This document shows positions 3,626 through 19,162 of a DNA stretch of 64,000 nucleotides, piece after piece. This DNA comes from Giardia muris (lineage: Eukaryota; Fornicata; Diplomonadida; Hexamitidae). The stretch spans positions 620,001 to 684,000 of the forward strand of contig CM016928.1 of assembly GCA_006247105.1 (NCBI GenBank), written 5' to 3'. The notes under the pieces are model-generated. The model had not been told where the DNA came from. It did not search any database and saw only the letters and a program-made list of their open reading frames with translations. How positions within the stretch are numbered: the first letter of the stretch is position 1; each line of letters begins with the position of its first letter. Both the position numbers and the translations under genes were made by a program.

Positions 3626-4252
3626 TTAACTCGCAGCGACGACCGGGGTGAAGGCGGCCACGACAGACTCCATGGCCCACCGCATCTGAGGGACTTGGAA
3701 ACAACCATTCACGCCCCATGTAGGACCCCAAGTATTCTCCAATAACCAGAACGGTGACCCCTTCTCGTCGACTCCCCACCCGATGAGTATGACGTGATGC
3801 GATCCAACGGGTACTCCGTTGCCTCCTTCATACATCTCCCTCCCATCATGGTAGAAGAGCCCATGGTCCAATGGGATGACCACATGTAAAGGGCCGTTGT
3901 CCATGAGCTCCTGTTTGATCCCTTCAACATCTCGGTGCCCGATATTATGAATATCTTCAAGTCTTAAAGCCATCCCATCCATAGTGAAAAGGTCCATGGT
4001 CCCGAGACGGTCCCAGAGACGCACGAGGTTATCATCAACGGTGGTGTGGTTCAATATCTGCTCATATGAAACAACCCGATATGTACCTCGAAGCATACAA
4101 AGTCGCCGCGCGATCGTGGTAGCGGCGGCATGAGCCCAAGCTTCGGCGAGTGGGGCGGCCTCCGGAGGTTTGCTACAATGCTGGTACATCTCCCGCCAAT
4201 CGTACATTGGAGGAAGAGGGTGCGCGAGCGCAACGACGAGAACGCCAAGCAT
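3626..4252 (-). CDS. Papain-like (C1) protease homologue lacking catalytic Cys
   Basis: The 208-residue product has a short hydrophobic N-terminus (MLGVLVVALA), likely a signal peptide, followed directly by the mature-type start YDWRE with no propeptide. Family C1 landmarks are visible. NGPLHVVI matches the usual NGP strand, GSHHVILIGWG holds the catalytic His (about 152) and ENTWGPTWG holds the catalytic Asn (about 173). The Cys region reads PLAEAWAHAA, so Ala38 stands where the catalytic Cys before Trp is expected, and the oxyanion Gln is also missing. It is therefore probably an inactive cathepsin-B/L relative with a binding or decoy role in the endomembrane system. It diverges from the ZMYND12-like gene across a 12-bp A/T-rich gap. 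Confidence 0.78.
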   Translation of the reverse strand: MLGVLVVALAHPLPPMYDWREMYQHCSKPPEAAPLAEAWAHAAATTIARRLCMLRGTYRVVSYEQILNHTTVDDNLVRLWDRLGTMDLFTMDGMALRLEDIHNIGHRDVEGIKQELMDNGPLHVVIPLDHGLFYHDGREMYEGGNGVPVGSHHVILIGWGVDEKGSPFWLLENTWGPTWGVNGCFQVPQMRWAMESVVAAFTPVVAAS

Positions 4253-4264
4253 TCACCGAAATTA
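4253..4264. promoter_or_regulatory. 12-bp bidirectional initiator region
   Basis: Two divergent start codons are separated by only 12 bp containing GAAATTA. A/T-rich initiators at the start codon are the known Giardia core promoter, so one element probably serves both genes. Confidence 0.45.
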
Positions 4265-5707
4265 ATGCCTTGGGAGCGTAACGCTTCGAAAGGCGGGCGA
4301 GTCTTCGAAAGAGAAGGACTCTCCAGGGAGGAGCTCGAATGGAATACCCTTGCTCAGCGACGGTTGCGGACTCAACGGTTTGCGACTCTGAAGAACGTCA
4401 ACCCACTCGCCATGCCGAGGGCGAAGGCTCTGTTTTACACATGCGAGGTGTGTACGCAGCCCGCGAAACTCCAGTGCTCGAAGTGTGGAAGCTGTTGGTG
4501 CAAACAGGAGCATTTCCTACTCGACTCAGAGAGTATACATTTCGCCATCTGTCCAAAGCTTGCTGAAATTCGAGAACTCTCTCTTCAAGAGGGACGTCTC
4601 GAGAGCCTTGCAGAAATCGTCCAACGCGCGCATGAAGCCCCAGTCCAAATCGGACTGCTACGAGAAGTTTGCGATGCTGCACAAGAGCGGGCAGAACGGT
4701 ACATCGGGGACCGTTGCTACATCATGGCGGTCGCTCCTGCCTCCCGCTATATGCGTCTTGCGTTACTGCTCTACTCTGCAACAAGCTACGAATACCTTCA
4801 TGCCTCTATCCTAGTAGCGCGTGCTCAGCTCGGATTGGAGAAGTACTCGCGTGTCGAGGCTACGCTTGTGCAACTTCGTGCCGATGCCTTCCGCCTACTT
4901 GACCACGTACAATCGGAAATTGGGAGACCAGCTGATACTCGTGCCAAACCTTCCGTCGGAGGCACGCTAATATCTCTTCAGTTATGCACCATGCCACTTC
5001 GAATCATAGCTCGGATACCTTCGCGATACATTGCACTCTTGGGAAGCCTCTACCTCATCGCCGGGACTCTCTATCTCGACATGGGGCGTTACAAAGAGGC
5101 GCTTCATGAGTATGCTCATTCCAGCTATTGTATGGCTCTGGCGTATGGGCCTGCAAGTCTTGAAACATCCCTCGCGTATTCGAACGTCGCGTTCGTGTAT
5201 CTACGCAAAGCCTACGATCTACCAGTTCCCATGCGCTTCGAGCATTTTCTCGAGCATATCCAACACAACCCTGATACCAACATTGTCGACAAAGAAACAC
5301 TCACTCGTGCAGTTCACGTTGCCCTATTCGTCGTGAACGTCTGGGCGACGCATCTCCGGCAACGGATGAATATGGGACAAGGAATCACACTTCACACTAG
5401 AGACGCTGGAGATCCACGTCGAGTCCTTCTTGAGATTCAATGTTTCATCCGTCTTCATTGTGGTCAAGTGTCCTTTGAGTATGGACATGCGTCTCTGACG
5501 CTTGCGCTTTTGTATGCTGTGTATGACGATGAGGCCAATGCCTTTCTACACTCGAAGCGGGCCTATGAGGCTTTCCGGGCGGGTCTCGAAAATCCTGACG
5601 CCTGGGCCTCACCATACTCCGCCGAGGCCAAGGCATACGCCTCAGAGGCGCGGGAGACGATGGACGCGCTCTCGGCCTTCATCACTCGTTTCTCACACCT
5701 ACGATAA
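4265..5707 (+). CDS. ZMYND12: ZMYND12-like MYND-finger TPR protein
   Basis: The 480-residue protein has a MYND zinc finger near residues 60-96 (C60-C63, C71-C74, C79, H83, H92, C96). Helical TPR-like repeats follow (for example GTLYLDMGRYKEALHEYAHS and SLAYSNVAFVYLRKA). Finger-then-TPR order without a SET domain, plus similarity of the segment around the finger, fits animal ZMYND12. That is a ciliary/flagellar protein linked to TTC29 and inner dynein arms. The start is the ATG behind GAAATTA; the open frame reaches upstream into the divergent protease gene but is unlikely to be used. The last 106 bp lie inside the left arm of the inverted repeat, and a detached copy of them sits at 17182-17287. 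The stop is immediately followed by the RRS1 ATG. Confidence 0.72.
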   Translation: MPWERNASKGGRVFEREGLSREELEWNTLAQRRLRTQRFATLKNVNPLAMPRAKALFYTCEVCTQPAKLQCSKCGSCWCKQEHFLLDSESIHFAICPKLAEIRELSLQEGRLESLAEIVQRAHEAPVQIGLLREVCDAAQERAERYIGDRCYIMAVAPASRYMRLALLLYSATSYEYLHASILVARAQLGLEKYSRVEATLVQLRADAFRLLDHVQSEIGRPADTRAKPSVGGTLISLQLCTMPLRIIARIPSRYIALLGSLYLIAGTLYLDMGRYKEALHEYAHSSYCMALAYGPASLETSLAYSNVAFVYLRKAYDLPVPMRFEHFLEHIQHNPDTNIVDKETLTRAVHVALFVVNVWATHLRQRMNMGQGITLHTRDAGDPRRVLLEIQCFIRLHCGQVSFEYGHASLTLALLYAVYDDEANAFLHSKRAYEAFRAGLENPDAWASPYSAEAKAYASEARETMDALSAFITRFSHLR

Positions 5708-6229
5708 ATGCAATTCGACCTTCATTATCTCATGGCGACTGATCCAACACCCTTGCCGCCGGGGCTTCTGGAACCTGAGACAGACGAGCATCAGATGATG
5801 GATGTCGCTGTTCGGACCGTTGCAGCCCTCTGCAAGGAGTTTGTGCAGCTCCCTCGAGTATCAAGCAACATCGGGCTTATGGGGACGTTACCTCCTCCGA
5901 TCCTTCATCTTCCGCGTGAGAAGCCTCTTCCAAAGCCGCGGGAGCCAACTCGATGGGAACTGTTCGCCAAGACGAAAGGGATCAAGAAGCGAAAGAGATC
6001 ACGGCTTGTGTATGACGAGAAGGTCAAGGAATACCGTCCACGTTATGGGAGGAATCGACGGACAGATAACACGACAGAGTATGACCCGATCATCCCTGCA
6101 AAGGAGGGGGTTGATGATTATCCAGGGGCGAAGGATGCCTTTACAGTGGTTCGGGAAGCGCGCTTGGCACGCATCGCAAAGAACAAGGCTCAACGCGCCG
6201 CGAACCTACGGCGGGGCGGGAGGAGGTGA
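5708..6229 (+). CDS. RRS1: Ribosome biogenesis regulatory protein RRS1 (left copy)
   Basis: RRS1 acts in the nucleolus in assembly of the 60S subunit, delivering 5S RNP components with RPF2. The 173-residue protein has the family signature LPREKPLPKPREPTRWELFA, then a basic stretch (KKRKRSRLVYDEKVKEYRPRYG) and a basic C-terminus. It is somewhat shorter than yeast RRS1 (203). The ATG directly follows the previous stop (GATAAATG). A second in-frame Met eight codons on (MATDPT) could be the true start. The gene lies wholly inside the left repeat arm and has an identical copy at 16660-17181. It converges on eIF3j with about 10 bp between stops. Confidence 0.85.
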   Translation: MQFDLHYLMATDPTPLPPGLLEPETDEHQMMDVAVRTVAALCKEFVQLPRVSSNIGLMGTLPPPILHLPREKPLPKPREPTRWELFAKTKGIKKRKRSRLVYDEKVKEYRPRYGRNRRTDNTTEYDPIIPAKEGVDDYPGAKDAFTVVREARLARIAKNKAQRAANLRRGGRR

Positions 6230-6239
6230 ATGTTTACCC

Positions 6240-6998
6240 TTATATAAAGTCGTCGTACCCGCAAGCATTGTCATACTTCTGGTGTCCTGACGAGGAGCCA
6301 CCCACATAGATCTGGGGCTTCCCACTACCCTTCTTTTTCTTCTTTTTGTCTTGCTCACGACGATACATCTCTGCGGAGATGCGGGCACAGACATCCGAGA
6401 GCTCTTTAACATCCTCGGGATAAAGTGGTTCAACCGCGCCTGTGATGATGCGTTTTAGACAGGCCATATAGAGGACGTCGTTGTCCTCGCGAGCCGTACG
6501 CTTCAAGGTGCTCCGGAGCTTCTCTACGACCCTGTCTGCAAGGCGATCGAAGTCGTTCGCCGTCTCGGCTGGGAGATCATCAATACTCTTGAGACTCTTC
6601 ATCGTCTTCTCAGCGCCCTCCACATGCATGAAGTCATCCTCCAGACTACGAATACCAGGCTGGTCTTTGTTTGCCTTCTTGGTGGCAGACTCCTCGGATT
6701 CAGAGGAATCGTCAAGCATGCGCTTCGCCGCATCGATGCTTTGCTCCGCGCGTTGACGGGCAGCAACTCGGTGACTTCCTTCACCTGTATCCATGGGAGT
6801 GGACCCCGAGAATACCTCACGCTCACGGTTACGAAGATTCCGACGGCGCTCGGCCAGCGCTTGCTCGTCTTGTCGCTTCTGTTCCTCGGCCGCTTGCTGC
6901 TGCTTCTTCTTGCTGAGGCGCTCGGCGTTCTTTGCCCACGAGTCGCCTCCTGACCCCTCAGAGCCTTCAGAACTGCTACCGAAGTCTAGCTCAGGCAT
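6240..6998 (-). CDS. EIF3J: Translation initiation factor eIF3 subunit J-like (left copy)
   Basis: The 252-residue protein is highly charged. It has an acidic Ser/Gly-rich start, an Ala/Gln/Lys-rich helix (residues about 28-60), a helical core (ETANDFDRLADRVVEKL, then LKRIITGAVEPLYPEDVKEL) and a Lys-rich segment followed by a tail ending GYDDFI. A C-terminal Lys-rich patch and a final Y-D/E-D-F motif are typical of eIF3j/Hcr1, which binds the 40S decoding centre and helps subunit recruitment and recycling. The start follows GTGAAAA. An identical copy is at 15891-16649. Assignment rests on the tail and overall layout; the N-terminal half is too low-complexity to help. Confidence 0.72.
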   Translation of the reverse strand: MPELDFGSSSEGSEGSGGDSWAKNAERLSKKKQQQAAEEQKRQDEQALAERRRNLRNREREVFSGSTPMDTGEGSHRVAARQRAEQSIDAAKRMLDDSSESEESATKKANKDQPGIRSLEDDFMHVEGAEKTMKSLKSIDDLPAETANDFDRLADRVVEKLRSTLKRTAREDNDVLYMACLKRIITGAVEPLYPEDVKELSDVCARISAEMYRREQDKKKKKKGSGKPQIYVGGSSSGHQKYDNACGYDDFI

Positions 6999-8194
6999 TT
7001 TTCACGGGGTTGATCAGAATCAACGAACAAGTCCTGATTGTAAGCTATTCCCGTTGAGGGACTAAGGGATCTATGAGTTACCGTGGGAACCTTCCCGTTC
7101 TTGGCTCTCCTTGAGGCACTCGATTTGGTTATTGGGTTGGAATCGAGGTTGGGAGTATTTTCCTACTGTGGTCGGTCTATGTCTCGACTTATAGAAGAGG
7201 AAACTGTTGTTAACAAATCTCAAGATTAGGAACGCAGACGCTATGTTCCTCCGGGAGGTCACTTAGGAATCGTTAATTGGATCTCGAAGAGCTCTTATCT
7301 TTGTTACTGGGAGGGCCGTCGGAACTCACTCTTGGTAACGCACCTCTCGACTCATTTCAGTTCTACACAAAGGGAAGATCCAAGTCATCTGTGTTGTCGT
7401 AGAACGGCTTAGATCACAACCTGCGGGCTCAAGAGAGCAGGTTATTGAGGAGATTTGACACAGAAGTCCGTACTCGATTATCTCCGAATCACTACCCTTC
7501 TCATGAGTCGAGCACGATCGCTATCTTGCAGTCGGACGTATTGTGGATACGCTAAATAGCGATTTCAGCCTTTTAGATATCGTTCAAGCTTTGATCGGCT
7601 GCCCATCTCCGGCTCCTTCCACTGAGTAAAGTGCTTCATTCTACCATTTTCACTCATGGGCAGTCACTCTTCTATGAGGAGTTCACTACCTCAAAGACCT
7701 CTTGTATGGCAACCTTTTGCTGCTAGACAATTGATTGATGTAGCTTAGCCTGCACCAGCCAGAGACCGGATCCCGAATGGTATGTTCTCGTCATGTTGAT
7801 CACCTTCGCTCCTAGACTTCCCTCTCGGATATACGCTGAAGCACTGTCGAACTGATCCTGTAAGAAATCCTAGGATTTCTCTGGGTCGTCGCCCCATCCT
7901 CTCCACCACCAATCTCAAGACCCTTCCCAGTGTGCAATACTTCACTCTGGGCTGACAAATCCCTTGACTCAGGCCCTTCATTGAGCTTTTAACTGGGAAG
8001 ACAGGTCTCCTCCCATAACAAGGAGAACGAAGATGTCGATCCCCGCAATACCACATTGATGGTCCTCCGTGCAGAAGAGAAGTACTCGGGGCAGACCTCC
8101 CTGCTGGACAAGAGAGCCACTCTCGCTTATGCAAGAAGACGTCTGGCCCAGCACGACCGGCGATACAGGAGGAGGAGGGCTAGGCCCCGGGCAG
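6999..8194. other. 1.2-kb non-coding region in left repeat arm
   Basis: I see no convincing protein gene. The frames present are short and lack initiators. It is less GC-rich than its neighbours. It holds an 18-bp perfect palindrome at 7863-7880. The same region, reversed, is at 14695-15890. It may contain non-coding RNA genes, but I recognise none apart from the tRNA that follows. Confidence 0.6.
7863..7880. repeat. 18-bp perfect palindrome
   Basis: AGAAATCC followed by TAGGATTTCT reads the same on both strands. The mirrored copy lies at 15009-15026. Function unknown. Confidence 0.8.
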
Positions 8195-8282
8195 TGGGGT
8201 GTGGTGTAGTGGGAGCACGACGGCTCTTGAAGAACAATCTGGTACTCATGCCGTTACCCGGGTTCGATTCCCGGCACTCCAG
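8195..8282 (+). tRNA. Probable tRNA with 18-nt intron, possibly Gln(UUG) (left copy)
   Basis: The 88-nt segment folds as a tRNA. The acceptor TGGGGTG pairs with CACTCCA (one G-U), followed by G as discriminator. The D-stem is GTGT/GCAC around an AGTGGGA loop, and the anticodon stem is ACGGC/GCCGT. The T-arm is CCGGG-TTCGATT-CCCGG. The internal promoter boxes fit (A box TGGTGTAGTGGG, B box GGTTCGATTCC). The anticodon loop is 25 nt long, so an intron of about 18 nt after position 37 is likely. That placement gives anticodon TTG with an unusual C at position 33. A different stem register would give CTT (Lys), so the isotype is uncertain. No T-run terminator is seen just downstream. Confidence 0.72.
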
Positions 8283-8498
8283 CTTCGCTCTCTTCGAGGA
8301 AGACACCGCCCACTCCTTCTCGTCCTGTCACCTTCCGACTCTCCGTCTCGATGGGAAGGACCCCTCTCTTGAAGACCCTCTCCAGGCCTACTTGTTGAAG
8401 CCCTTGGGTCTCCACCCTCGGGGAGTTGAGGAACATCCAGCCAGGCACTCCACGCACTTCGTTGACGTCGAAGACAGTGGATGTAAGATATGAGAGTC

Positions 8499-9752
8499 CT
8501 AGAGGTACACCTTGACAGTGTTGTCGATGGGAGTCCTGCAGAGCGGGCAGGTCTGGCCTTTGAGCTGACTCGAACAGCCAGAGCAGGTGCAGATGTGCTT
8601 GCAGGGCTGGAGGAGCGTGTCCTTCGGATTCGTGGGGCAGACAATGCAGCTACTCGATTGGAGGACGGCCCGGGACGTCGTGATGGTCTTCAGTGAGGTT
8701 GTCAGGTTCCTCTCGAGCTCGTCAGTCCTCTCCTGGAGGTGGGCAGTGAGCTCTGCGATCCTTCGACCGTGCTCCTGCCGTTCTGCGGCCACCTCGGCGT
8801 CTTTCTCCTCGAGGCGCCGCTGTAGAGATGCGATCTCTGCAGCGTTCGTCTTTCGGTCCTGCTGCTCAGTGAGCTGCCTGAGGAAGTTCAGCTCAGCAAT
8901 GATGTTGGAGAATGCGTTCTCTGCATGCTGGGCGTCGTCCCCAGAGAAGGCAGTGCTGAGTTCTTGCATGGTCAGCAGCTTCCTCTGTGCAACCGAGAGG
9001 TGACGTCCGACTCCCACTCCTGCTCCCGCGTCGTCTCGAAGAATGCGGGCACAACACTGACATCGAGTATGGTGACTGGCCTTCGAACCAACAGACTCTG
9101 CAATATCGAGGGCTGACTCGCCCTGGGAGTTCTCAAGGTCCGCCTCTTCCAGAAGGAGCTTCACGCATCCGACTTCCCCGTGCTGTGCGGCGAGCATCAG
9201 GGCTGTCCGACCCTCCTAGTCCTGCATCCGGAGCTCCTGAGTTCGGAGAAGACGGACGAACTCCACCTCGCCCCTCTCTGCGGCGTACATGAGTGCCGTC
9301 CGTCCATCCGTGTCCTTCCTTCCCGCTTCATCCAGATGAGCATGGAAGGCCTCCCGGTCTCCTGCGATGATGGCCTGGATGAGGGACGTGATGTCGACCG
9401 CAGGGGGAAGAAGCCGAAGGACCAGGTTATCGGGGGAGTCCCGTTCTAGAAGAGCGATAAGTTCCTTGCTGTTCCTGGGATTCGCACGTGCAATGTGACC
9501 TGCTGTGTCGCCTTGGGAGTCGCGAAGGCCGAGCTCATACGGTTCAAGGAGAGCGACGATGTCCGTACTTCCTCGGGCTGCACACATCAGGGGCGTCCAG
9601 CTGCTTCGGTGCTTCTTTCCGACATCCGTGACTTTGGGCCTCACGGTCTTGCTATCCCCCTTACGAACGCCTTCATCGAGAACGTAAAGGTGTTTCCTGA
9701 GCATTGGGAGCATCCTATCCCTCCGGTCCCTGAGGCCGGGGGCCCACTCCAT
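8499..9752 (-). pseudogene. Ankyrin-coiled-coil-RING gene interrupted by in-frame TAG
   Basis: Two same-frame open segments are separated by a single TAG at 9216-9218 (plus-strand cta). The stop falls within an ankyrin repeat, right after ELRMQD and before EGRTALMLAA, where intact paralogues read MQDN-G-WTALM. The upstream segment has ankyrin repeats. The downstream one has a repeat, a coiled coil (about 65 residues) and a C-terminal IAP-type RING (CIVC, CKHICTCSGC, CPLC) that should act as a ubiquitin E3. No A/T-rich initiator precedes the first ATG (9752), so the 5' end may also be lost. It is either a pseudogene, a readthrough gene or a sequencing error. The last 136 bp are the inner end of the left repeat arm and are identical to the end of the intact paralogue at 12786-14390. 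Confidence 0.75.
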
Positions 9753-10097
9753 CAGCACAGAAAGAGAATAGACCCTGGGATTCAGTGCTCCTTCCGAGCC
9801 TGCGGAACGGCCCGTTCACTCAGGGTGCTCTCGTCCCTGGATGAGCTCCCACTGGTCATCGGTCTCCCCTTATAGCCCCCCAATCTCCTGGTGATGATCG
9901 GGCCCGTTCCCCTCTCAAGGACGAATGGCCTCTGACGAGAGCCGTGCCAGACGGAGAGAGGGCCCCACTGGCTTCCCGGGGACGGGTGCATCGATCTGGA
10001 CGCCCCTCTGTTGTCGAGGGGATGCGAGATGGCGGGTCGGCCTCTTGGACCGGAGGAGCGTCCTCAGTGAGAGGGAGGATGGGGTTGACGTTCAAAA
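9753..10097. other. GC-rich gap between divergent ankyrin genes
   Basis: No supported gene is seen. The stretch ends in TTCAAAA directly before the ATG at 10098, a typical initiator. The end facing the broken ankyrin gene has no such element. Confidence 0.5.
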
Positions 10098-11117
10098 ATG
10101 TCCTCCACTGACTTGATGAGGGCAGCCTTGAATGGAGATCTTGAGGGCGTCGAGGCCAACCTCGGAGATATTGGGAAGCAGAATAAAGGTGGTTGGACGG
10201 CCTTGATGTATGCCGTAGAGAAAGGCCACGCTAACTGCATTCCCCTCCTTAAGGAGGAGATTAGAATGCAGGACAACGACGGGTGGACTGCATTGATGAA
10301 GGCCGCAATATTTGGCTACACAGACTGCGTTCGACTCCTCCTCTCCGAGGCAAGAAAGCAGACAACGAAGGAATGGAGAGTTTTCCCTCCTGGAACAACG
10401 GCGCTCATGGTGGCCTCCTTCAACGGCCAAGTAGATTGCATTCTCCTACTTGAGAAAGAGATCGGGATCCAGGATAATGAGGGATGGACCGCACTGATGC
10501 ATGCCGCCTACAATGGCAAAATAGACTGTGCTCGACTCCTTCTTTCTGAAGCTGGGAAACAAACAACGAAGGAATGGAACGAGTATTCCCCTGACGAATG
10601 GGATAGTTCTGATTCTGAAGAACAATACGGTTTTCCTCCTGGAATGACTGCACTCATGATCGCAGTCCGTCAGAACTGTCCTGAGATGATTGAACTTCTC
10701 CTCCCCTATGAACAGGGAATGGGAGATTCCAAGGGACATACTGCTCAATGGTACGCAAATAACGGTGATTTAGGTGAGGACGACTTCACTAGTGTTTGTG
10801 AGCTCCTCAAGAATGAAGGAACGGAAAGAATTCATCCACCATCGAATCTTGGTGATGTGCTTAGACTCCAGGAGCACCTTAGCAAACTCACAACTGAGAA
10901 TGAGACCCTCAAAATGGAACTCGCAGACCAGAAGGCCCAGAACATCGCCCTCGAAAAGGAGGTTACCCAATTGAGGACCGAGAGCCATGACATGAAAGAC
11001 CTTCAGAGACGCCTCGAGGAAGTGGAGGAGGAGAAGAGGATCCTCCTCCAGAACCTCGCTGCTGTCGGGGGCAGGCTCACCAACCACCCCCAGGGCATTG
11101 GAACGCCCACTGGATGA
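10098..11117 (+). CDS. Ankyrin-repeat protein with C-terminal coiled coil, no RING
   Basis: The 339-residue protein starts behind TTCAAAA. Residues 1-240 are ankyrin repeats of the Giardia 21.1 style (GWTALMYAVEKGHANCIPLL, GWTALMHAAYNGKIDCARLL). Two repeats carry inserts after KQTTKEW. Residues about 255-325 form a coiled coil (LKMELADQKAQNIALEKEV). The protein ends abruptly at GTPTG, just where the neighbouring paralogues continue into a RING finger. Loss of the RING by truncation or frameshift is likely, leaving a binder without E3 function. Repeat sequences are very close to those of the 12786 gene, showing local duplication. Confidence 0.8.
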   Translation: MSSTDLMRAALNGDLEGVEANLGDIGKQNKGGWTALMYAVEKGHANCIPLLKEEIRMQDNDGWTALMKAAIFGYTDCVRLLLSEARKQTTKEWRVFPPGTTALMVASFNGQVDCILLLEKEIGIQDNEGWTALMHAAYNGKIDCARLLLSEAGKQTTKEWNEYSPDEWDSSDSEEQYGFPPGMTALMIAVRQNCPEMIELLLPYEQGMGDSKGHTAQWYANNGDLGEDDFTSVCELLKNEGTERIHPPSNLGDVLRLQEHLSKLTTENETLKMELADQKAQNIALEKEVTQLRTESHDMKDLQRRLEEVEEEKRILLQNLAAVGGRLTNHPQGIGTPTG

Positions 11118-12785
11118 CCTGCGTCCGGAGGCAGGGGCAGGAGGTCGGAAGGCCCGGCCGGATGAAGGAGTCCCCGTCGGTCCTCCTATGGGCCTCCGGG
11201 ATCAACGGTCATCGTCCAGTGCCCCGGTCTTCGTCCTTCGATCAAGAGGAGTGAACGGGATCACGGGAGGGACGAGAGGACGACCATGAGCCCCGGTTGA
11301 TCCCAACCCGTCTCCATGAAGGAGGGCCGGCCTCCTCGGATCTGCCTGAGGGCATGGATGGAGAGCGGGGAAGGGCACCAGGCCGTGCATGGCTGTGTGA
11401 GCCAATCCCGGCTGCTCACTGCTCCGGACTCGTGACAGAAGTGGGTGTCCGGAGTTCACGCCCTCCAGCTTGTGGGGCCGTGCCACGAACTGGAGCCTGT
11501 TCGAGGAGCGTGAGGTGCACGGGTCGACGCCACCATGGACAGTATCCTCCTTGGTCGTCCCACGATGCACTGAGAATCATCGGGGATGACAGCATCCACG
11601 ACGACGGGTCCTCAGGCACAGGGAAGACCGTCCGAGTCGAACGGAGTTCCGTGGTTGGGCGTCAGTCGGTTCGTGGAAGGACACGTTCTACCTCCTTCCC
11701 GACTGTGGTGGCATCGGGAGGTCCACCATCGGCTGGGGACGTCGGGGGGACCTGGAACTTCAAAGTGCTTGTTCAGTCACAGAACACAGCATACACCAGC
11801 ACAACAACACACCCGTCCTTAGCATACTACTCCCTTATCCGACTATAAGGACGCGACCCTTGACCTCCTTGAACCATCCCGTAAGAGATCTCTTTCATGC
11901 GCCTCCTTTCGCTTTCGGATGCCCCTCTCTCGGAGGAACTCTCTACCCCCCTTCACCCGACCGGCTCTACCGTACCGGAACCTTCACTATCTGACGGAGG
12001 AGGACCTTAACCCCCTGGCCCTTTGCAACAGTTCTGGCACAGGGGGGTCTTTCATCGATCCATCGTCCGTAGCAGAAACCCGCCTCTCCACCCCCCTCAT
12101 CGATTTCACGGACACCTCGTCGTTCGAGCCCTCTGAGTCTTCTGTATTTGAGGAGCAGATCCCCCGAAGAGCAACCTCCAGCTATGGATAGAGGGTAGCT
12201 CTCGACCCACGACATTCTAGAGTCAAGCAGGAACGTGACCCCATCGACCGAGGAGACCCATATCTCCATATCAGACTCCTCGGACTTCGAGGTAATCGAG
12301 CCGCACGACACGGACGATGAGGAGCTCTACGATGCCAGCCAGTCCGCTGTAGAGGTCCTCGTGACCAGGGGATCTGGGGAGACATCCAGTTCAACGAGCA
12401 AAGCACGTACAGGGAGGCCCTGGGTCGACCAACCTCTTTTCTGCTCAGACGACTGCACGTGCAGGGGCGATCGGACCGTCCCACTGCTCGACCGCCAGAG
12501 AGGCCCATGTCTCTGCAAGACCTCTCTGTCGTCGGGGACGGATCCGCCACCTGGGATGGTGAGAGATGCTCCTCTTGGGGCGGGGTGGTAGTCATCCCCG
12601 CGGGCCTGGAGGCACGAGTAGGGCTGTGGAGGAGTGAACGGACGCGGGGCCTCTGCCCGCCCGGGGAGACCGTTCCGAGAGGTCCTCTCAGGCAGGGACG
12701 TGGGGAACGCCCCGTCGTGCCCCTTCTGAGGGGACTGGGATGGGGGCGTCCTCAGGTGAAGAAAGTGGACATCTGATTCTCAAAA
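11118..12785. other. 1.67-kb GC-rich region with ORF relics
   Basis: No gene has a convincing initiator or recognisable domain here. Short open frames occur throughout. Two of them, near 11919-12191 and 12235-12420 in different frames, are Ser/Asp/Glu-rich and could be relics of one gene. The region ends with TCTCAAAA, the initiator of the next ankyrin gene. Confidence 0.5.
11919..12420 (+). pseudogene. Possible relic of an acidic Ser-rich coding region
   Basis: The frame at 11919-12191 includes a plausible protein-like stretch (TEEDLNPLALC, then LIDFTDTSSFEPSESSVFEE). It stops at TAG. About 45 bp later another frame continues in similar acidic style (ISISDSSDFEVIEPHD, then DDEELYDASQSAVEVL). 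Shared composition across a frame change suggests one decayed reading frame. No homologue is recognised, and chance ORFs in GC-rich DNA are a real alternative. Confidence 0.25.
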
Positions 12786-14390
12786 ATGTCTGATACGGCA
12801 TTGATGAAGGCGGCTAAAGCTGGAGATCTCGAAGCCATGAGGGCCAATCTCAATGAGGTTGGAAGAAAGGATGAAAATGGTGGGACAGCCCTGATGAGAG
12901 CTGCTCTTAGAGGCCATATAAACTGTGTTCAACTCCTTCTCTCAGAAACCGGGGGGCAAACGACGAGAAACTGCAATGGGTTATCTCCTGGAGCAACTGC
13001 CCTCATGCTTGCAGCCCACCGGAACCACATCGAGATCGTCCAACTTCTCATCCCTTACGAACAGAAGATGAAGAACAATAATGGAGAGACAGCCTTGATG
13101 CAGGCCGCGATGTGGGGGCACGTCAACTGCATTCCCCTCCTCGAGGGGGAGATCGGGATGCAGGACAACTGGGGATTGACCGCACTGATGCATGCCGCCT
13201 ACAATGGAAAGACAGACTGTGCCCGACTCCTTCTTTCTGAAGCTGGGAAGCAGACGACGAAGGAATGGTATGGGTTCCCCCCTAGAACAACTGCTCTCAT
13301 GATGGCAGCTCGCCGGAACCATCCCGATATCGTTGAACTCCTTCTTCTATATGAACAGGGTATGGAGAATTTCTATAAGCACACAGCCAAGTGGCACGCA
13401 TACAACAGTTCAAAGAAAGGTAACTTCACCCGAGTCTGCGAACTCCTTGAGAACGAGGGGACAGAACGTATACCTCCACCTTCCAAAGGACCGCTGATGT
13501 TCTTAGTTTCCGCCGTGATGGGGGATGTTGATGGAATTCAGAAGAATCTGAGCTATGTGGGTTATCAAGGGCCGAATGGAATGACAGCACTGATGTTGGC
13601 TGCAGAGAAGGGTCACACAAATTGCATTCCTCTCCTCAAAAGGGAGATTGGGAAGCAGAACAGAAATGGGGAGACTGCCTTGATGAGAACCGCCTACAAC
13701 GGCCACAAAGATTGCATCTTCCTGCTTGAAAAAGAGATTGGGATGCAGAACAAGAATGGTTGGACAGCCTTGATGCTAGCAGCAGCGAAAGGTCACGCTA
13801 AATGCATTCCTCTTCTCAGGAAGGAGCTTGGAATGAGGGATAATTACGGAAACACGACCTTGATGAAAGCCGCTTATAACGGCCACAAGAACTGCGTCCA
13901 ACTTCTTCTTTCCGAGGCAGGGAAGAAAACGACAGATGAATGGGAGAATACTTTTGATGGCTATCTCCCCGGAATGACGGCTCTCATGATAGCAGCCCAC
14001 CGGAACCGCCCCGATATCGTTGAGCTCCTTCTCCCCTACGAACAGGGAATGAAAGACTCTAAAGGACACACAGCTCAATGGTATGCGAACAACGGTTCAA
14101 GGGGAGGAGACTTCACCCGTGTCCGTCAGCTCCTCGAGAATGAGGGCACGGAACGGATCCCTCCCCCGACTCCTGGAGCAGCCGGCCGGAGAGGCGTCAA
14201 GAAGCTCTCCTCGTCCAGGAGCCTTCCAGAAGGGATGACCTGTGTCATCTGCCTCACGAATCCGAAGGACACGCTCCTCCAGCCCTGCAAGCACATCTGC
14301 ACCTGCTCTGGCTGTTCGAGTCAGCTCAAAGGCCAGACCTGCCCGCTCTGCAGGACTCCCATCGACAACACTGTCAAGGTGTACCTCTAG
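12786..14390 (+). CDS. Ankyrin-repeat RING-finger protein (putative E3 ligase)
   Basis: The 534-residue protein begins behind TCTCAAAA. It consists of about ten ankyrin repeats (motif GxTALMxAAxxGHxxCIPLL) with two or three longer repeats carrying KQTTKEW-type inserts. A short linker follows, then a C-terminal IAP-like RING: CVIC, CKHICTCSGC, CPLC, ending TVKVYL. Ankyrins would bind substrates and the RING would recruit a ubiquitin E2. Unlike the gene at 8499-9752 it has no coiled coil before the RING. Codons for the RING from 14255 on belong to the right repeat arm and match the broken paralogue exactly, so the two RINGs are either freshly duplicated or homogenised. Confidence 0.85.
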   Translation: MSDTALMKAAKAGDLEAMRANLNEVGRKDENGGTALMRAALRGHINCVQLLLSETGGQTTRNCNGLSPGATALMLAAHRNHIEIVQLLIPYEQKMKNNNGETALMQAAMWGHVNCIPLLEGEIGMQDNWGLTALMHAAYNGKTDCARLLLSEAGKQTTKEWYGFPPRTTALMMAARRNHPDIVELLLLYEQGMENFYKHTAKWHAYNSSKKGNFTRVCELLENEGTERIPPPSKGPLMFLVSAVMGDVDGIQKNLSYVGYQGPNGMTALMLAAEKGHTNCIPLLKREIGKQNRNGETALMRTAYNGHKDCIFLLEKEIGMQNKNGWTALMLAAAKGHAKCIPLLRKELGMRDNYGNTTLMKAAYNGHKNCVQLLLSEAGKKTTDEWENTFDGYLPGMTALMIAAHRNRPDIVELLLPYEQGMKDSKGHTAQWYANNGSRGGDFTRVRQLLENEGTERIPPPTPGAAGRRGVKKLSSSRSLPEGMTCVICLTNPKDTLLQPCKHICTCSGCSSQLKGQTCPLCRTPIDNTVKVYL

Positions 14391-14606
14391 GACTCTCATA
14401 TCTTACATCCACTGTCTTCGACGTCAACGAAGTGCGTGGAGTGCCTGGCTGGATGTTCCTCAACTCCCCGAGGGTGGAGACCCAAGGGCTTCAACAAGTA
14501 GGCCTGGAGAGGGTCTTCAAGAGAGGGGTCCTTCCCATCGAGACGGAGAGTCGGAAGGTGACAGGACGAGAAGGAGTGGGCGGTGTCTTCCTCGAAGAGA
14601 GCGAAG

Positions 14607-14694
14607 CTGGAGTGCCGGGAATCGAACCCGGGTAACGGCATGAGTACCAGATTGTTCTTCAAGAGCCGTCGTGCTCCCACTACACCACACCCCA
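14607..14694 (-). tRNA. Probable tRNA with 18-nt intron, possibly Gln(UUG) (right copy)
   Basis: This copy is identical in reverse complement to 8195-8282: same acceptor, D, anticodon and T stems, same 25-nt anticodon loop and the same doubt over isotype. It lies about 217 bp beyond the stop of the ankyrin-RING gene and faces it. Confidence 0.72.
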
Positions 14695-15890
14695 CTGCCC
14701 GGGGCCTAGCCCTCCTCCTCCTGTATCGCCGGTCGTGCTGGGCCAGACGTCTTCTTGCATAAGCGAGAGTGGCTCTCTTGTCCAGCAGGGAGGTCTGCCC
14801 CGAGTACTTCTCTTCTGCACGGAGGACCATCAATGTGGTATTGCGGGGATCGACATCTTCGTTCTCCTTGTTATGGGAGGAGACCTGTCTTCCCAGTTAA
14901 AAGCTCAATGAAGGGCCTGAGTCAAGGGATTTGTCAGCCCAGAGTGAAGTATTGCACACTGGGAAGGGTCTTGAGATTGGTGGTGGAGAGGATGGGGCGA
15001 CGACCCAGAGAAATCCTAGGATTTCTTACAGGATCAGTTCGACAGTGCTTCAGCGTATATCCGAGAGGGAAGTCTAGGAGCGAAGGTGATCAACATGACG
15101 AGAACATACCATTCGGGATCCGGTCTCTGGCTGGTGCAGGCTAAGCTACATCAATCAATTGTCTAGCAGCAAAAGGTTGCCATACAAGAGGTCTTTGAGG
15201 TAGTGAACTCCTCATAGAAGAGTGACTGCCCATGAGTGAAAATGGTAGAATGAAGCACTTTACTCAGTGGAAGGAGCCGGAGATGGGCAGCCGATCAAAG
15301 CTTGAACGATATCTAAAAGGCTGAAATCGCTATTTAGCGTATCCACAATACGTCCGACTGCAAGATAGCGATCGTGCTCGACTCATGAGAAGGGTAGTGA
15401 TTCGGAGATAATCGAGTACGGACTTCTGTGTCAAATCTCCTCAATAACCTGCTCTCTTGAGCCCGCAGGTTGTGATCTAAGCCGTTCTACGACAACACAG
15501 ATGACTTGGATCTTCCCTTTGTGTAGAACTGAAATGAGTCGAGAGGTGCGTTACCAAGAGTGAGTTCCGACGGCCCTCCCAGTAACAAAGATAAGAGCTC
15601 TTCGAGATCCAATTAACGATTCCTAAGTGACCTCCCGGAGGAACATAGCGTCTGCGTTCCTAATCTTGAGATTTGTTAACAACAGTTTCCTCTTCTATAA
15701 GTCGAGACATAGACCGACCACAGTAGGAAAATACTCCCAACCTCGATTCCAACCCAATAACCAAATCGAGTGCCTCAAGGAGAGCCAAGAACGGGAAGGT
15801 TCCCACGGTAACTCATAGATCCCTTAGTCCCTCAACGGGAATAGCTTACAATCAGGACTTGTTCGTTGATTCTGATCAACCCCGTGAAAA
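14695..15890. other. 1.2-kb non-coding region in right repeat arm
   Basis: This is the mirror copy of 6999-8194, with the 18-bp palindrome at 15009-15026. No protein gene can be supported. Confidence 0.6.
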
Positions 15891-16649
15891 ATGCCTGAGC
15901 TAGACTTCGGTAGCAGTTCTGAAGGCTCTGAGGGGTCAGGAGGCGACTCGTGGGCAAAGAACGCCGAGCGCCTCAGCAAGAAGAAGCAGCAGCAAGCGGC
16001 CGAGGAACAGAAGCGACAAGACGAGCAAGCGCTGGCCGAGCGCCGTCGGAATCTTCGTAACCGTGAGCGTGAGGTATTCTCGGGGTCCACTCCCATGGAT
16101 ACAGGTGAAGGAAGTCACCGAGTTGCTGCCCGTCAACGCGCGGAGCAAAGCATCGATGCGGCGAAGCGCATGCTTGACGATTCCTCTGAATCCGAGGAGT
16201 CTGCCACCAAGAAGGCAAACAAAGACCAGCCTGGTATTCGTAGTCTGGAGGATGACTTCATGCATGTGGAGGGCGCTGAGAAGACGATGAAGAGTCTCAA
16301 GAGTATTGATGATCTCCCAGCCGAGACGGCGAACGACTTCGATCGCCTTGCAGACAGGGTCGTAGAGAAGCTCCGGAGCACCTTGAAGCGTACGGCTCGC
16401 GAGGACAACGACGTCCTCTATATGGCCTGTCTAAAACGCATCATCACAGGCGCGGTTGAACCACTTTATCCCGAGGATGTTAAAGAGCTCTCGGATGTCT
16501 GTGCCCGCATCTCCGCAGAGATGTATCGTCGTGAGCAAGACAAAAAGAAGAAAAAGAAGGGTAGTGGGAAGCCCCAGATCTATGTGGGTGGCTCCTCGTC
16601 AGGACACCAGAAGTATGACAATGCTTGCGGGTACGACGACTTTATATAA
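15891..16649 (+). CDS. EIF3J: Translation initiation factor eIF3 subunit J-like (right copy)
   Basis: The protein is identical to that of 6240-6998: 252 residues, acidic start, Ala/Gln/Lys helix, helical core, Lys-rich patch and GYDDFI tail. It retains its GTGAAAA initiator, so it should be expressed. If both arms are real, the cell has doubled dosage of this factor. Confidence 0.72.
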   Translation: MPELDFGSSSEGSEGSGGDSWAKNAERLSKKKQQQAAEEQKRQDEQALAERRRNLRNREREVFSGSTPMDTGEGSHRVAARQRAEQSIDAAKRMLDDSSESEESATKKANKDQPGIRSLEDDFMHVEGAEKTMKSLKSIDDLPAETANDFDRLADRVVEKLRSTLKRTAREDNDVLYMACLKRIITGAVEPLYPEDVKELSDVCARISAEMYRREQDKKKKKKGSGKPQIYVGGSSSGHQKYDNACGYDDFI

Positions 16650-16659
16650 GGGTAAACAT

Positions 16660-17181
16660 TCACCTCCTCCCGCCCCGCCGTAGGTTCGCGGCGCGTTGAG
16701 CCTTGTTCTTTGCGATGCGTGCCAAGCGCGCTTCCCGAACCACTGTAAAGGCATCCTTCGCCCCTGGATAATCATCAACCCCCTCCTTTGCAGGGATGAT
16801 CGGGTCATACTCTGTCGTGTTATCTGTCCGTCGATTCCTCCCATAACGTGGACGGTATTCCTTGACCTTCTCGTCATACACAAGCCGTGATCTCTTTCGC
16901 TTCTTGATCCCTTTCGTCTTGGCGAACAGTTCCCATCGAGTTGGCTCCCGCGGCTTTGGAAGAGGCTTCTCACGCGGAAGATGAAGGATCGGAGGAGGTA
17001 ACGTCCCCATAAGCCCGATGTTGCTTGATACTCGAGGGAGCTGCACAAACTCCTTGCAGAGGGCTGCAACGGTCCGAACAGCGACATCCATCATCTGATG
17101 CTCGTCTGTCTCAGGTTCCAGAAGCCCCGGCGGCAAGGGTGTTGGATCAGTCGCCATGAGATAATGAAGGTCGAATTGCAT
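16660..17181 (-). CDS. RRS1: Ribosome biogenesis regulatory protein RRS1 (right copy)
   Basis: The protein is identical to that of 5708-6229, with the LPREKPLPKPREPTRWELFA signature. Its immediate upstream DNA is only 106 bp of copied ZMYND12-like 3' sequence before the repeat breaks, so any promoter must lie in that copied piece or in unique DNA beyond 17287. Confidence 0.85.
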   Translation of the reverse strand: MQFDLHYLMATDPTPLPPGLLEPETDEHQMMDVAVRTVAALCKEFVQLPRVSSNIGLMGTLPPPILHLPREKPLPKPREPTRWELFAKTKGIKKRKRSRLVYDEKVKEYRPRYGRNRRTDNTTEYDPIIPAKEGVDDYPGAKDAFTVVREARLARIAKNKAQRAANLRRGGRR

Positions 17182-17287
17182 TTATCGTAGGTGTGAGAAA
17201 CGAGTGATGAAGGCCGAGAGCGCGTCCATCGTCTCCCGCGCCTCTGAGGCGTATGCCTTGGCCTCGGCGGAGTATGGTGAGGCCCAG
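17182..17287 (-). pseudogene. Orphan 3' fragment of the ZMYND12-like gene
   Basis: This is the reverse complement of 5602-5707, the last 35 codons and stop of the ZMYND12-like gene. Nothing related continues past 17287, so it marks the duplication breakpoint. Confidence 0.9.
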
Positions 17288-17458: not shown

Positions 17459-19162
17459 ATGAACAAGTGCACTGTTTATCAAGATGGAAACCTCATCCAG
17501 TCTTATGACATAGCCGTCTCAGATATCATCGTTGGACGTGCAACAAAGGATGGATCTGCTCCGAAGGTTGAGGAGGGAACGCTCTTTATTCCACTCCCAG
17601 GACCTGCTATCTCGTCTCGACACCTGACAATCAATCTTGGAGATACCGTCACAGTCACTGACAGCTCGCGTACAGGGTCAGTGGTTCAACATGGTGGGGA
17701 GAGCCATGATCTCCACAACACATCGCATACGTTCGCAGCGGGACCGCAATTCGTTATTGTCTGCGTCTCGAAGAATATAGAGTTCCGGCTCATCTTCGCT
17801 AACGAGAGTGAGCAGAAGAACCAGCTCACAGAGATTCCTGCATCGGCTCCGGAGCCTAAAAGAAAGACGGCTACTCAGAAGGCAAAGGTTTCCAAGACCT
17901 CCACGGATGAGAAAGCATCGAAGCGAACAAAGACGACTGCTGTGAAGGAGAAACCAGTCAAGGAGAAAGCCACAAAGCCTCGCACTCGGAAGGTTGCGGA
18001 GGTATGTGATGCAGAACCGACACCTCCTGAGCCACAGAATGAGTCTTTTCACGAGTTTAGTGGGGTTGACGATGATGACGATGAGAATGAAAGCCTTCAG
18101 ATCGATGACACTGAGGAAGAGATAGAAGAGGAAGAAGAGAAGCCCGAAGAACTCTCCGAAGAAGGTGAAGCATTTGCTGATGTGCCACTCGATTCTGCAG
18201 ATATTCCCGTCCCAACTGCTTACGACCTCGAAGAGTACACGCGGCGCCGGGCACAGATGCCTACATGTCGAGGGGATGGAATTTCGCTTAAGTCTGCACT
18301 TGAGGAGCTTGGACCTGCAGCTCGCTGCTGCTGGTGCAACTATCTAAGATCTGAACTGAAGGAAACAGTTTCGGAGCTCAGCATTCATGCAGATGAGGGT
18401 TATGCGTTTGAGCGCGTCGACGTCTTCTTCACAAACAAATTTCGACGGACCGCACGTTACCTCCTCGCGATTCATCGTGGGATCCCGATCATCAGAGAAG
18501 AGTATCTTATCCGCTGCCAGAAAACTGTCTTACGTGACTCTGAACTTCCTTTCCCGCATGCTGCGAAGTATCTTCTTCGTCCGACTCGCGAGGAAGCCGC
18601 CCAAAATGACCCCGAGCTCCTCAAAGTGCTTCCTAATGATTGGTCACTCCCACGTGTAATTGCACGTGCTCGGAAGTATCCCGTTGTCATAACTTGCGCA
18701 GAAAGTGTCTTGATTGCTCCTGAAGCCATTATTGGGCATCCGATGGAGCGTAAGTCGCTTGTCGATGATCTCGTTACGCTTTATAGCTTTGCACTCCTCA
18801 CAGCTGGGATGGGGGTTACAAGGACGACTATTTTGCTACCAGAAGAGTTCGACCGTGCAGTCTGCTCGGAGAGTTTCTATGAAGCATTTCCTGAGGCGCA
18901 TCGTCGTCCAGCTCGCCAATTTCATCCTTGTGCCCGTCTTTCGACATTAGAAGAGCGTATTCTCGAAGCCGCTGGACCTGCGGGTGAAGAGGGGACGCCC
19001 ACGCTTCTAATCGTTCCTGATCCTAGTAGCCCGCACTACGAGCCATATTCCAGCTTTAAGGGAGTAGTTGACGGCCGAACCTTCATCCAGATGACGCGTG
19101 CCGGAATTGTACACAGCGTCTTACTTGGAGAACCCGTCTTTGAGGCGCACTTCATCCAGTAA
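17459..19162 (+). CDS. FHA and BRCT domain protein (Nbs1-like architecture)
   Basis: The 567-residue protein starts behind AGATAAAA; the frame is open further upstream, but only through the orphan fragment. Residues 1-115 look like an FHA phosphothreonine-binding domain (IIVGR, then GPAISSRHLTINLG, then DSSRTGSVV). A basic Lys/Thr-rich linker and an acidic stretch (residues about 200-255) follow. A BRCT-like segment comes next (FERVDVFFTNKFRRTARYLLA, then GIPIIREEYLIRC). The C-terminal 190 residues may hold a second BRCT. FHA then BRCTs recalls Nbs1 of the MRN DNA-break complex, but the long linker differs, so DNA-damage signalling is an inference. The stop lies in an AGTAAAT signal that also overlaps the next ATG. 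Confidence 0.68.
   Translation: MNKCTVYQDGNLIQSYDIAVSDIIVGRATKDGSAPKVEEGTLFIPLPGPAISSRHLTINLGDTVTVTDSSRTGSVVQHGGESHDLHNTSHTFAAGPQFVIVCVSKNIEFRLIFANESEQKNQLTEIPASAPEPKRKTATQKAKVSKTSTDEKASKRTKTTAVKEKPVKEKATKPRTRKVAEVCDAEPTPPEPQNESFHEFSGVDDDDDENESLQIDDTEEEIEEEEEKPEELSEEGEAFADVPLDSADIPVPTAYDLEEYTRRRAQMPTCRGDGISLKSALEELGPAARCCWCNYLRSELKETVSELSIHADEGYAFERVDVFFTNKFRRTARYLLAIHRGIPIIREEYLIRCQKTVLRDSELPFPHAAKYLLRPTREEAAQNDPELLKVLPNDWSLPRVIARARKYPVVITCAESVLIAPEAIIGHPMERKSLVDDLVTLYSFALLTAGMGVTRTTILLPEEFDRAVCSESFYEAFPEAHRRPARQFHPCARLSTLEERILEAAGPAGEEGTPTLLIVPDPSSPHYEPYSSFKGVVDGRTFIQMTRAGIVHSVLLGEPVFEAHFIQ

What the first reader, a model, noticed from the sequence alone, without database searches (positions are those of the whole stretch)
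5602..17287. 3-kb near-perfect inverted repeat around an ankyrin gene nest
Arms of 3,033 bp (5602-8634, 14255-17287) appear identical in coding and non-coding parts and flank 5,620 bp. Two housekeeping genes and a tRNA are doubled. Identity in non-coding DNA implies a very recent event, active gene conversion, or an assembly error. Recombination between the arms would invert the spacer and leave the outer genes intact.
Basis: partly seen in the sequence, partly recalled or inferred. Interest (0 to 1): 0.8.

Follow-up and report, generated by a model that had tools for sequence, protein, structure and literature searches.

The report
Mirror-image gene duplication around ankyrin genes
A 3-kb stretch with two housekeeping genes and a tRNA appears twice, letter for letter and in mirror orientation, around ankyrin genes in what looks like the mouse parasite Giardia muris, and sister loci show that such mirror copies get overwritten from one side to the other.

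Summary
The inverted repeat is in the assembly exactly as described: arms 5602-8634 and 14255-17287, identical at 3,033 of 3,033 bases. They double RRS1, an eIF3j-like gene (each with 2 matches in the whole genome) and a tRNA. The genome fits Giardia muris.

The inner arm ends lie at the start of the RING domain of two divergent ankyrin-RING genes. The right gene is a chimera: its body matches two relatives (75/80 and 41/42 nt), but the flank after its stop codon is the left gene's type (54/60), unlike those relatives (21/60, 20/60). The left outer gene is whole; only its last 106 bp recur on the right. So the right arm was copied from the left, probably starting in RING homology.

Four further long repeats were read at ankyrin/NEK nests; three have the same RING-start boundary. 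At one sister pair (C1, C2) arms differ by 0 and 1 bases within a locus, but 180 of 6,415 sites separate the loci: arm-to-arm copying recurs.

Identical inverted VSP pairs around such genes are already published for this genome (PMC7641422), so this is a new variant of a known kind. The window arms' age and spacer inversion remain untested.

The parts
5602..8634 (+). left arm of the inverted repeat (inferred donor side)
   Evidence: 3,033 of 3,033 bases identical to the right arm
14255..17287 (-). right arm of the inverted repeat (inferred copy)
   Evidence: direction
8635..14254 (.). spacer of 5,620 bp with the ankyrin bodies
4130..5707 (+). gene crossing the left outer end (weak TPR match, below Pfam's cut-off); its last 106 bp lie in the arm
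17182..17287 (-). 106-bp tail of that gene, repeated at the right outer end without the rest of the gene
5708..6229 (+). RRS1 homologue, copy in left arm
   Evidence: PF04939, 5e-45
16660..17181 (-). RRS1 homologue, copy in right arm
6240..6998 (-). eIF3j-like gene (PF08597 eIF3_subunit), copy in left arm
   Evidence: 8.8e-13
15891..16649 (+). eIF3j-like gene, copy in right arm
8195..8282 (+). tRNA gene with a long anticodon loop (probable intron), isotype unsettled, left arm
14607..14694 (-). tRNA gene, right arm
8350..8498 (-). left-type 3' flank of the ankyrin-RING gene; family homology at other loci ends at 8350
14391..14539 (+). the same left-type 3' flank, found behind the right gene
8499..9197 (-). 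left ankyrin-RING gene; RING end (8499-8634) in the arm, body in the spacer; an upstream ankyrin ORF (9216-9752) lies apart, so the gene may be a broken copy
10098..11117 (+). ankyrin gene in the spacer
12786..14390 (+). right ankyrin-RING gene; RING end (14255-14390) in the arm, right-type body in the spacer
17459..19162 (+). gene beyond the right outer end, start read at an A-rich ATG (ORF begins earlier, at 17207); weak BRCT match
   Evidence: start is inferred

Best explanation
A one-sided copying event, started in the RING-domain homology of two ankyrin genes that point away from each other, carried the left gene's RING end, its 3' flank and about 2.7 kb of neighbouring DNA (tRNA, eIF3j-like gene, RRS1, last 106 bp of the next gene) onto the right side, in place of what had followed the right gene's RING. 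Break-induced replication or template switching at a fork is the likely route. Such repeats exist at several ankyrin/NEK nests of this genome, and arms are re-copied onto each other, so they stay nearly identical in coding and non-coding DNA. Shown: identity, the RING-start boundary, the chimeric right gene, the direction, and within-locus copying at a sister pair of loci. Inferred: the molecular route, and that conversion still acts on the window's own arms.
For: Arms identical at 3,033 of 3,033 bases. Arm identity begins 17 nt inside the left RING match here, and 3, 2 and 2 nt inside at three other repeats (on the right side 20, 0, 5 and 5 nt). Right gene: the 80 nt just upstream of the arm match C5:75.5 kb at 75, the 42 nt match C1:2808.9 kb at 41, against 32/80 and 23/42 for the left gene's body; the first 60 nt after the stop match these two at 21 and 20 but the C2 left-type flank at 54 (random mean 15.2, maximum 29). 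Further relatives of the right gene also stop matching within 4 nt of the stop codon (C1:653023-653289, C5:74931-75582, C4:695188-695343). Outer side: whole gene on the left, 106-bp tail on the right. C1 and C2 sister repeats: 0 of 6,416 and 1 of 7,136 differences within loci; 180 of 6,415 columns separate the loci, 1 separates the C2 arms, 0 are arm-specific across loci. Published: identical VSP pairs around psiARP-2/ARP-2/NEK genes (PMC7641422).
Against: No sister locus exists for the window's own arms, so conversion there is not tested. The five regions read were picked by eye from RING pairs facing opposite ways (35 such pairs within 25 kb); one of the five (C3) has no long repeat, only 427 bp at 82%, and the C5 repeat ends 78 nt beyond the RING gene, with no RING at its left arm end. 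The outer ends of the C1 and C2 repeats were not reached, so independent copying from the same RING edge is as possible there as an old repeat kept alike. No reads were seen.
Confidence: 0.72

Rival explanations
1. A single, very recent inverted duplication with no continuing conversion: the arms are identical only because they are young.
For: 0 differences in 3,033 bp fits a young event; one sequence alone cannot separate the two.
Against: Every one of the four other long repeats read is also 99.5-100% identical, the only decayed inverted matches seen being short (430 bp at 90.7%; 427 bp at 82%); the C1/C2 pair shows that within-locus copying happened after those loci parted.
Confidence: 0.2
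2. Assembly artefact: a false join or a folded-back read made the second arm.
For: Such errors make mirror copies; no reads could be checked here, and consensus building can hide small differences between arms.
Against: A folded-back read gives arms that abut; here a unique 5.6-kb spacer and two different outer flanks exist. The right gene's junction is explained by relatives. The assembly is from PacBio reads with Illumina correction (PMC7641422 passage), keeps 6 mismatches and a 4-base gap between the C5 arms and 180 sites between C1 and C2.
Confidence: 0.05
3. The ankyrin nest is a mobile element, or the spacer a switch that is inverted by a dedicated enzyme.
For: Divergent genes with shared RING ends at its edges; parts of the nest are dispersed in the genome.
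Against: No transposase or recombinase domain in 10 ORFs scanned in and near the repeat (not every ORF was scanned); arms consist of different local genes at different loci; inversion would change no protein because both RING ends are identical.
Confidence: 0.03

Closest known systems
Identical inverted VSP gene pairs and the duplicated arginase region of Giardia muris (Xu et al. 2020, PMC7641422, Table 3 and text)
   Same: Same genome by all features; identical gene copies in mirror orientation around psiARP-2, ARP-2, NEK or zinc-finger genes; the authors suggest ARPs and NEKs as anchoring points for recombination.
   Different: Here the arms carry RRS1, an eIF3j-like gene and a tRNA instead of VSPs. 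The RING-start boundary, the chimeric 3' flank, the direction of copying and the within/between-locus contrast were not in the parts of the paper that I read.
Gene-conversion palindromes of mammalian sex chromosomes (PMC3723533, PMC8981503; search listings with the start of the abstracts only)
   Same: Long gene-bearing inverted repeats with arm identity above 99.9% or 99%, kept so by arm-to-arm conversion.
   Different: Protist, an ordinary chromosome, arms of a few kilobases, and inner ends tied to a protein domain of a gene family.

Membership tests
gene-conversion palindrome (sex-chromosome type) | long inverted repeat with a unique spacer and near-perfect arms, non-coding DNA included | tested here: met
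   3,033 of 3,033 bases, spacer 5,620 bp
gene-conversion palindrome (sex-chromosome type) | arms more alike within a locus or species than their age allows (concerted evolution) | tested here: inconclusive
   met at the C1/C2 sister loci; no sister locus for the window's own arms
gene-conversion palindrome (sex-chromosome type) | occasional inversion of the spacer | not testable with these tools
   one assembly, no reads
G. muris identical inverted pairs (PMC7641422 Table 3) | identical mirror copies around ARP-2/NEK/zinc-finger genes | tested here: met
   ankyrin and RING matches in the spacer-edge genes
G. muris identical inverted pairs (PMC7641422 Table 3) | the paired genes are VSPs | tested here: not met
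   arm genes are RRS1, eIF3j-like and a tRNA
transposon with terminal inverted repeats | same terminal repeats at every copy | tested here: not met
   arms differ by locus; only the RING end and a short 3' flank recur
transposon with terminal inverted repeats | transposase gene | tested here: not met
   none among 10 ORFs scanned with Pfam; not every ORF was scanned

The most novel reading that the evidence does not exclude
In G. muris, pairs of ankyrin-RING genes facing away from each other act as seeds throughout the genome: recombination starting at the RING domain copies whatever lies outside one gene onto the outside of the other, and keeps re-copying it, so that any neighbouring gene can become a doubled mirror pair whose copies correct, or spoil, each other. 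This would be a domain-anchored palindrome system that serves housekeeping, surface and laterally acquired genes alike in a genome with little allelic variation.
Probability: 0.4. Interest if true: 0.75.

Novelty: new variant of a known kind. Interest (0 to 1): 0.57.

Why it matters
If RING-anchored copying is general, it explains how unrelated genes (RRS1, a tRNA, VSPs, the arginase region) end up as identical mirror pairs beside ankyrin genes, and it gives a protist counterpart to sex-chromosome palindromes. Allelic variation in this genome is very low (0.016% in PMC7641422), and how Giardia limits mutation build-up is an old question (recalled); conversion between mirror copies would be a testable part of an answer. 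It can also spread defects: the two C1 arms, identical to each other, carry the same shortened frame where C2 has a 290-aa arginase. Gene counts and heterozygosity near such nests need long reads.

Tried and rejected
Rejected: a mobile element with inverted ends (the shared 285 bp turned out to be the RING end plus the left-type 3' flank); insertion beside tRNA genes as a general rule (no tRNA found in 10 of 10 other loci scanned, with the search's default settings); a programmed inversion switch (no recombinase among the ORFs scanned, no coding change).

Led nowhere: three rows (L003, L005, L006) were in the wrong orientation and were used for no count. In one search the 'last 140 nt' comparison lies almost wholly inside the arm, so it says nothing about the gene body, and its gapped random control reached 100% in one of 200 draws (cause not examined); one search replaces both with ungapped counts. 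The gene order before duplication could not be checked in another Giardia: a protein search returned G. lamblia P15 RRS1 (59%) and an 88% relative on a 2-kb contig, without context. The outer ends of the C1 and C2 repeats were not reached. The tRNA isotype stayed open. Literature searches on Giardia with inverted repeats, gene conversion or palindromes gave listings in which I saw no other paper on this; one search listed 15 of 631, so absence from print is not shown. Only PMC7641422 was opened: outline with abstract, sections 6, 7, 9 and 12 in full, passages of 10, 14 and 17.

Full report
What was checked. The two arms, 5602-8634 and 14255-17287, are identical in 3,033 of 3,033 positions, and this is the only inverted repeat of 60 bp or more found in the window with 20-base seeds. 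The window is C4:620001-684000 of a genome of 9,737,486 bases in 52 contigs. Size, GC of 55.5% and contigs of 1,289,658 and 1,296,710 bases fit the published Giardia muris genome (9.8 Mbp, 54.7% GC, chromosomes of 1.290 and 1.297 Mbp, but 59 contigs; PMC7641422).

What is in the arms. From the outer end inwards: the last 106 bp of a TPR-like gene, RRS1 (5708-6229), an eIF3j-like gene (6240-6998, opposite strand), about 1.2 kb with only short ORFs, a tRNA (8195-8282), and the 3' flank and RING end of an ankyrin-RING gene. RRS1 and the eIF3j-like protein have two matches each in the genome, both here. The first 2,748 bp of the arm gave no further DNA match, while the last 285 bp belong to a dispersed family.

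The inner boundary. The two genes at the spacer edges point outwards, and their RING ends lie in the arms. On the left side arm identity begins 17 nt inside the RING match; at three other repeats it begins 3, 2 and 2 nt inside (C2:593034, C2:651136, C1:1447387); on the right side the figures are 20, 0, 5 and 5 nt. Upstream of that point the two gene bodies differ (for the C1 and C2 repeats). This is what copying that starts in shared homology, and reaches back only to its edge, would leave.

Direction. Just upstream of the arm, the window's right gene matches two right-type relatives, C5:75.5 kb (75 of 80 nt) and C1:2808.9 kb (41 of 42), where the left gene's body does not (32 of 80, 23 of 42). 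In the first 60 nt after the stop codon it does not match those relatives (21 and 20 of 60; random mean 15.2, standard deviation 3.5, maximum 29 in 1,998 draws) but matches the left-type flank at C2 (54 of 60). The two relatives' flanks resemble each other (136 of 145 aligned). Further relatives of the right gene also stop matching within 4 nt of the stop codon (C1:653023-653289, C5:74931-75582, C4:695188-695343). So the right gene's own flank was replaced by the left gene's. On the outer side the TPR-like gene is whole on the left, and only its 106-bp tail is present on the right, followed by the upstream region of another gene. Both ends say left to right.

Other loci. One search lists 35 pairs of RING matches facing opposite ways within 25 kb. 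Five regions were fetched, picked by eye, with a leaning to pairs of like score. Four hold a long repeat: C2:587240-593034/597201-602995, 5,795 bp at 99.983%, VSP in the arms; C2:644-661 kb, at least 7,136 bp with 1 mismatch, aldo/keto reductase and arginase in the arms; C1:1440-1457 kb, at least 6,416 bp with 0 mismatches, reaching 1440261 and 1457211 by equal-score matches; and C5:726-733 kb, 1,901 bp with 6 mismatches and one 4-base gap, of which 4 mismatches and the gap lie within 40 bp of the inner end, reaching 724129 and 735032 by equal-score matches. The fifth, C3:536-544 kb, has only a 427-bp inverted match at 82%. Spacer genes scanned at these four repeats (7 of 7) carry ankyrin matches, with RING or protein kinase domains. 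The C5 repeat ends 78 nt beyond the RING gene on the right and has no RING match at its left arm end, so the RING-start rule holds for 4 of 5 repeats read, window included. Two more mirror pairs are known by scores alone: C4:955961-961507/966641-972187 (7400/7400 bits) and C1:2373096-2375748/2380961-2383613 (3073/3068). Both have the axis at the other end of the same VSP segment, which suggests separate origins. An unselected 200 kb of C4 had no inverted match of 1 kb or more.

Conversion test. The C1 and C2 repeats are collinear with each other across both inner junctions and in parts of the spacer, about 97% in the arms. In 6,415 ungapped arm columns 180 sites separate C1 from C2, one site separates the two C2 arms, none separates the C1 arms, and none is arm-specific across both loci. 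Whatever the age of these repeats, their arms have been copied onto each other since the two loci parted. Either an old repeat is kept alike by conversion, or each locus was copied independently from the same RING edge; the outer ends would decide and were not reached. A third locus, C5:65-76 kb, has the same outer region once in the list (97%), with a left-type gene and a right-type gene that keeps another flank: it may be the state before duplication. Consensus building might hide small differences between arms, but the assembly does keep differences between the C5 arms and 180 sites between C1 and C2.

What is published. PMC7641422 reports seven pairs of identical VSP genes in mirror orientation around psiARP-2, ARP-2, NEK or zinc-finger genes (Table 3), an arginase region duplicated on chromosomes 1, 2 and 5 between ARPs and NEKs, and the suggestion that these families are anchoring points for recombination. 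The window holds the same kind of structure with housekeeping arms. The RING-start boundary, the chimeric flank and the within/between-locus contrast were not in the parts I read.

Limits. No reads, one assembly, few loci, chosen with RING orientation in mind. For the window's own arms a young single duplication remains possible. The molecular route (break-induced replication, template switching, conversion) is inferred.

Noticed in passing
window 10901-11761: An 861-bp stretch at the end of the spacer ankyrin gene recurs at 25 or more places, mostly at 93-96% identity, several of them on small contigs or near contig ends (capped list). Nature unknown.
   Followed up: no
window 8350: The left-type 3' flank is joined to unique DNA here, 67 bp past the tRNA, while at C1, C2 and C5:72 kb it continues in another sequence: a breakpoint where the ankyrin nest meets the housekeeping region.
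   Followed up: partly
C4:955961-972187 and C1:2373096-2383613: The VSP segment that forms arms at C2:587-603 kb also forms equal-score mirror pairs here with the axis at its other end. Coordinates resemble the alpha-tubulin pairs of Table 3 in PMC7641422 (not verified).
   Followed up: partly
C1:1442636-1443124 and 1454348-1454836: Both C1 arms carry the same shortened frame where C2 has a 290-aa arginase, in line with the paper's note that arginase is intact only on chromosome 2.
   Followed up: partly
C5:65-76 kb (L004, L041): Related nest with the arginase-side region found once and a right-type gene with its own flank: possibly the state before duplication.
   Followed up: partly
C4:543450-546590: Short inverted pair, 430 bp at 90.7%, between places 3 kb apart.
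   Followed up: no
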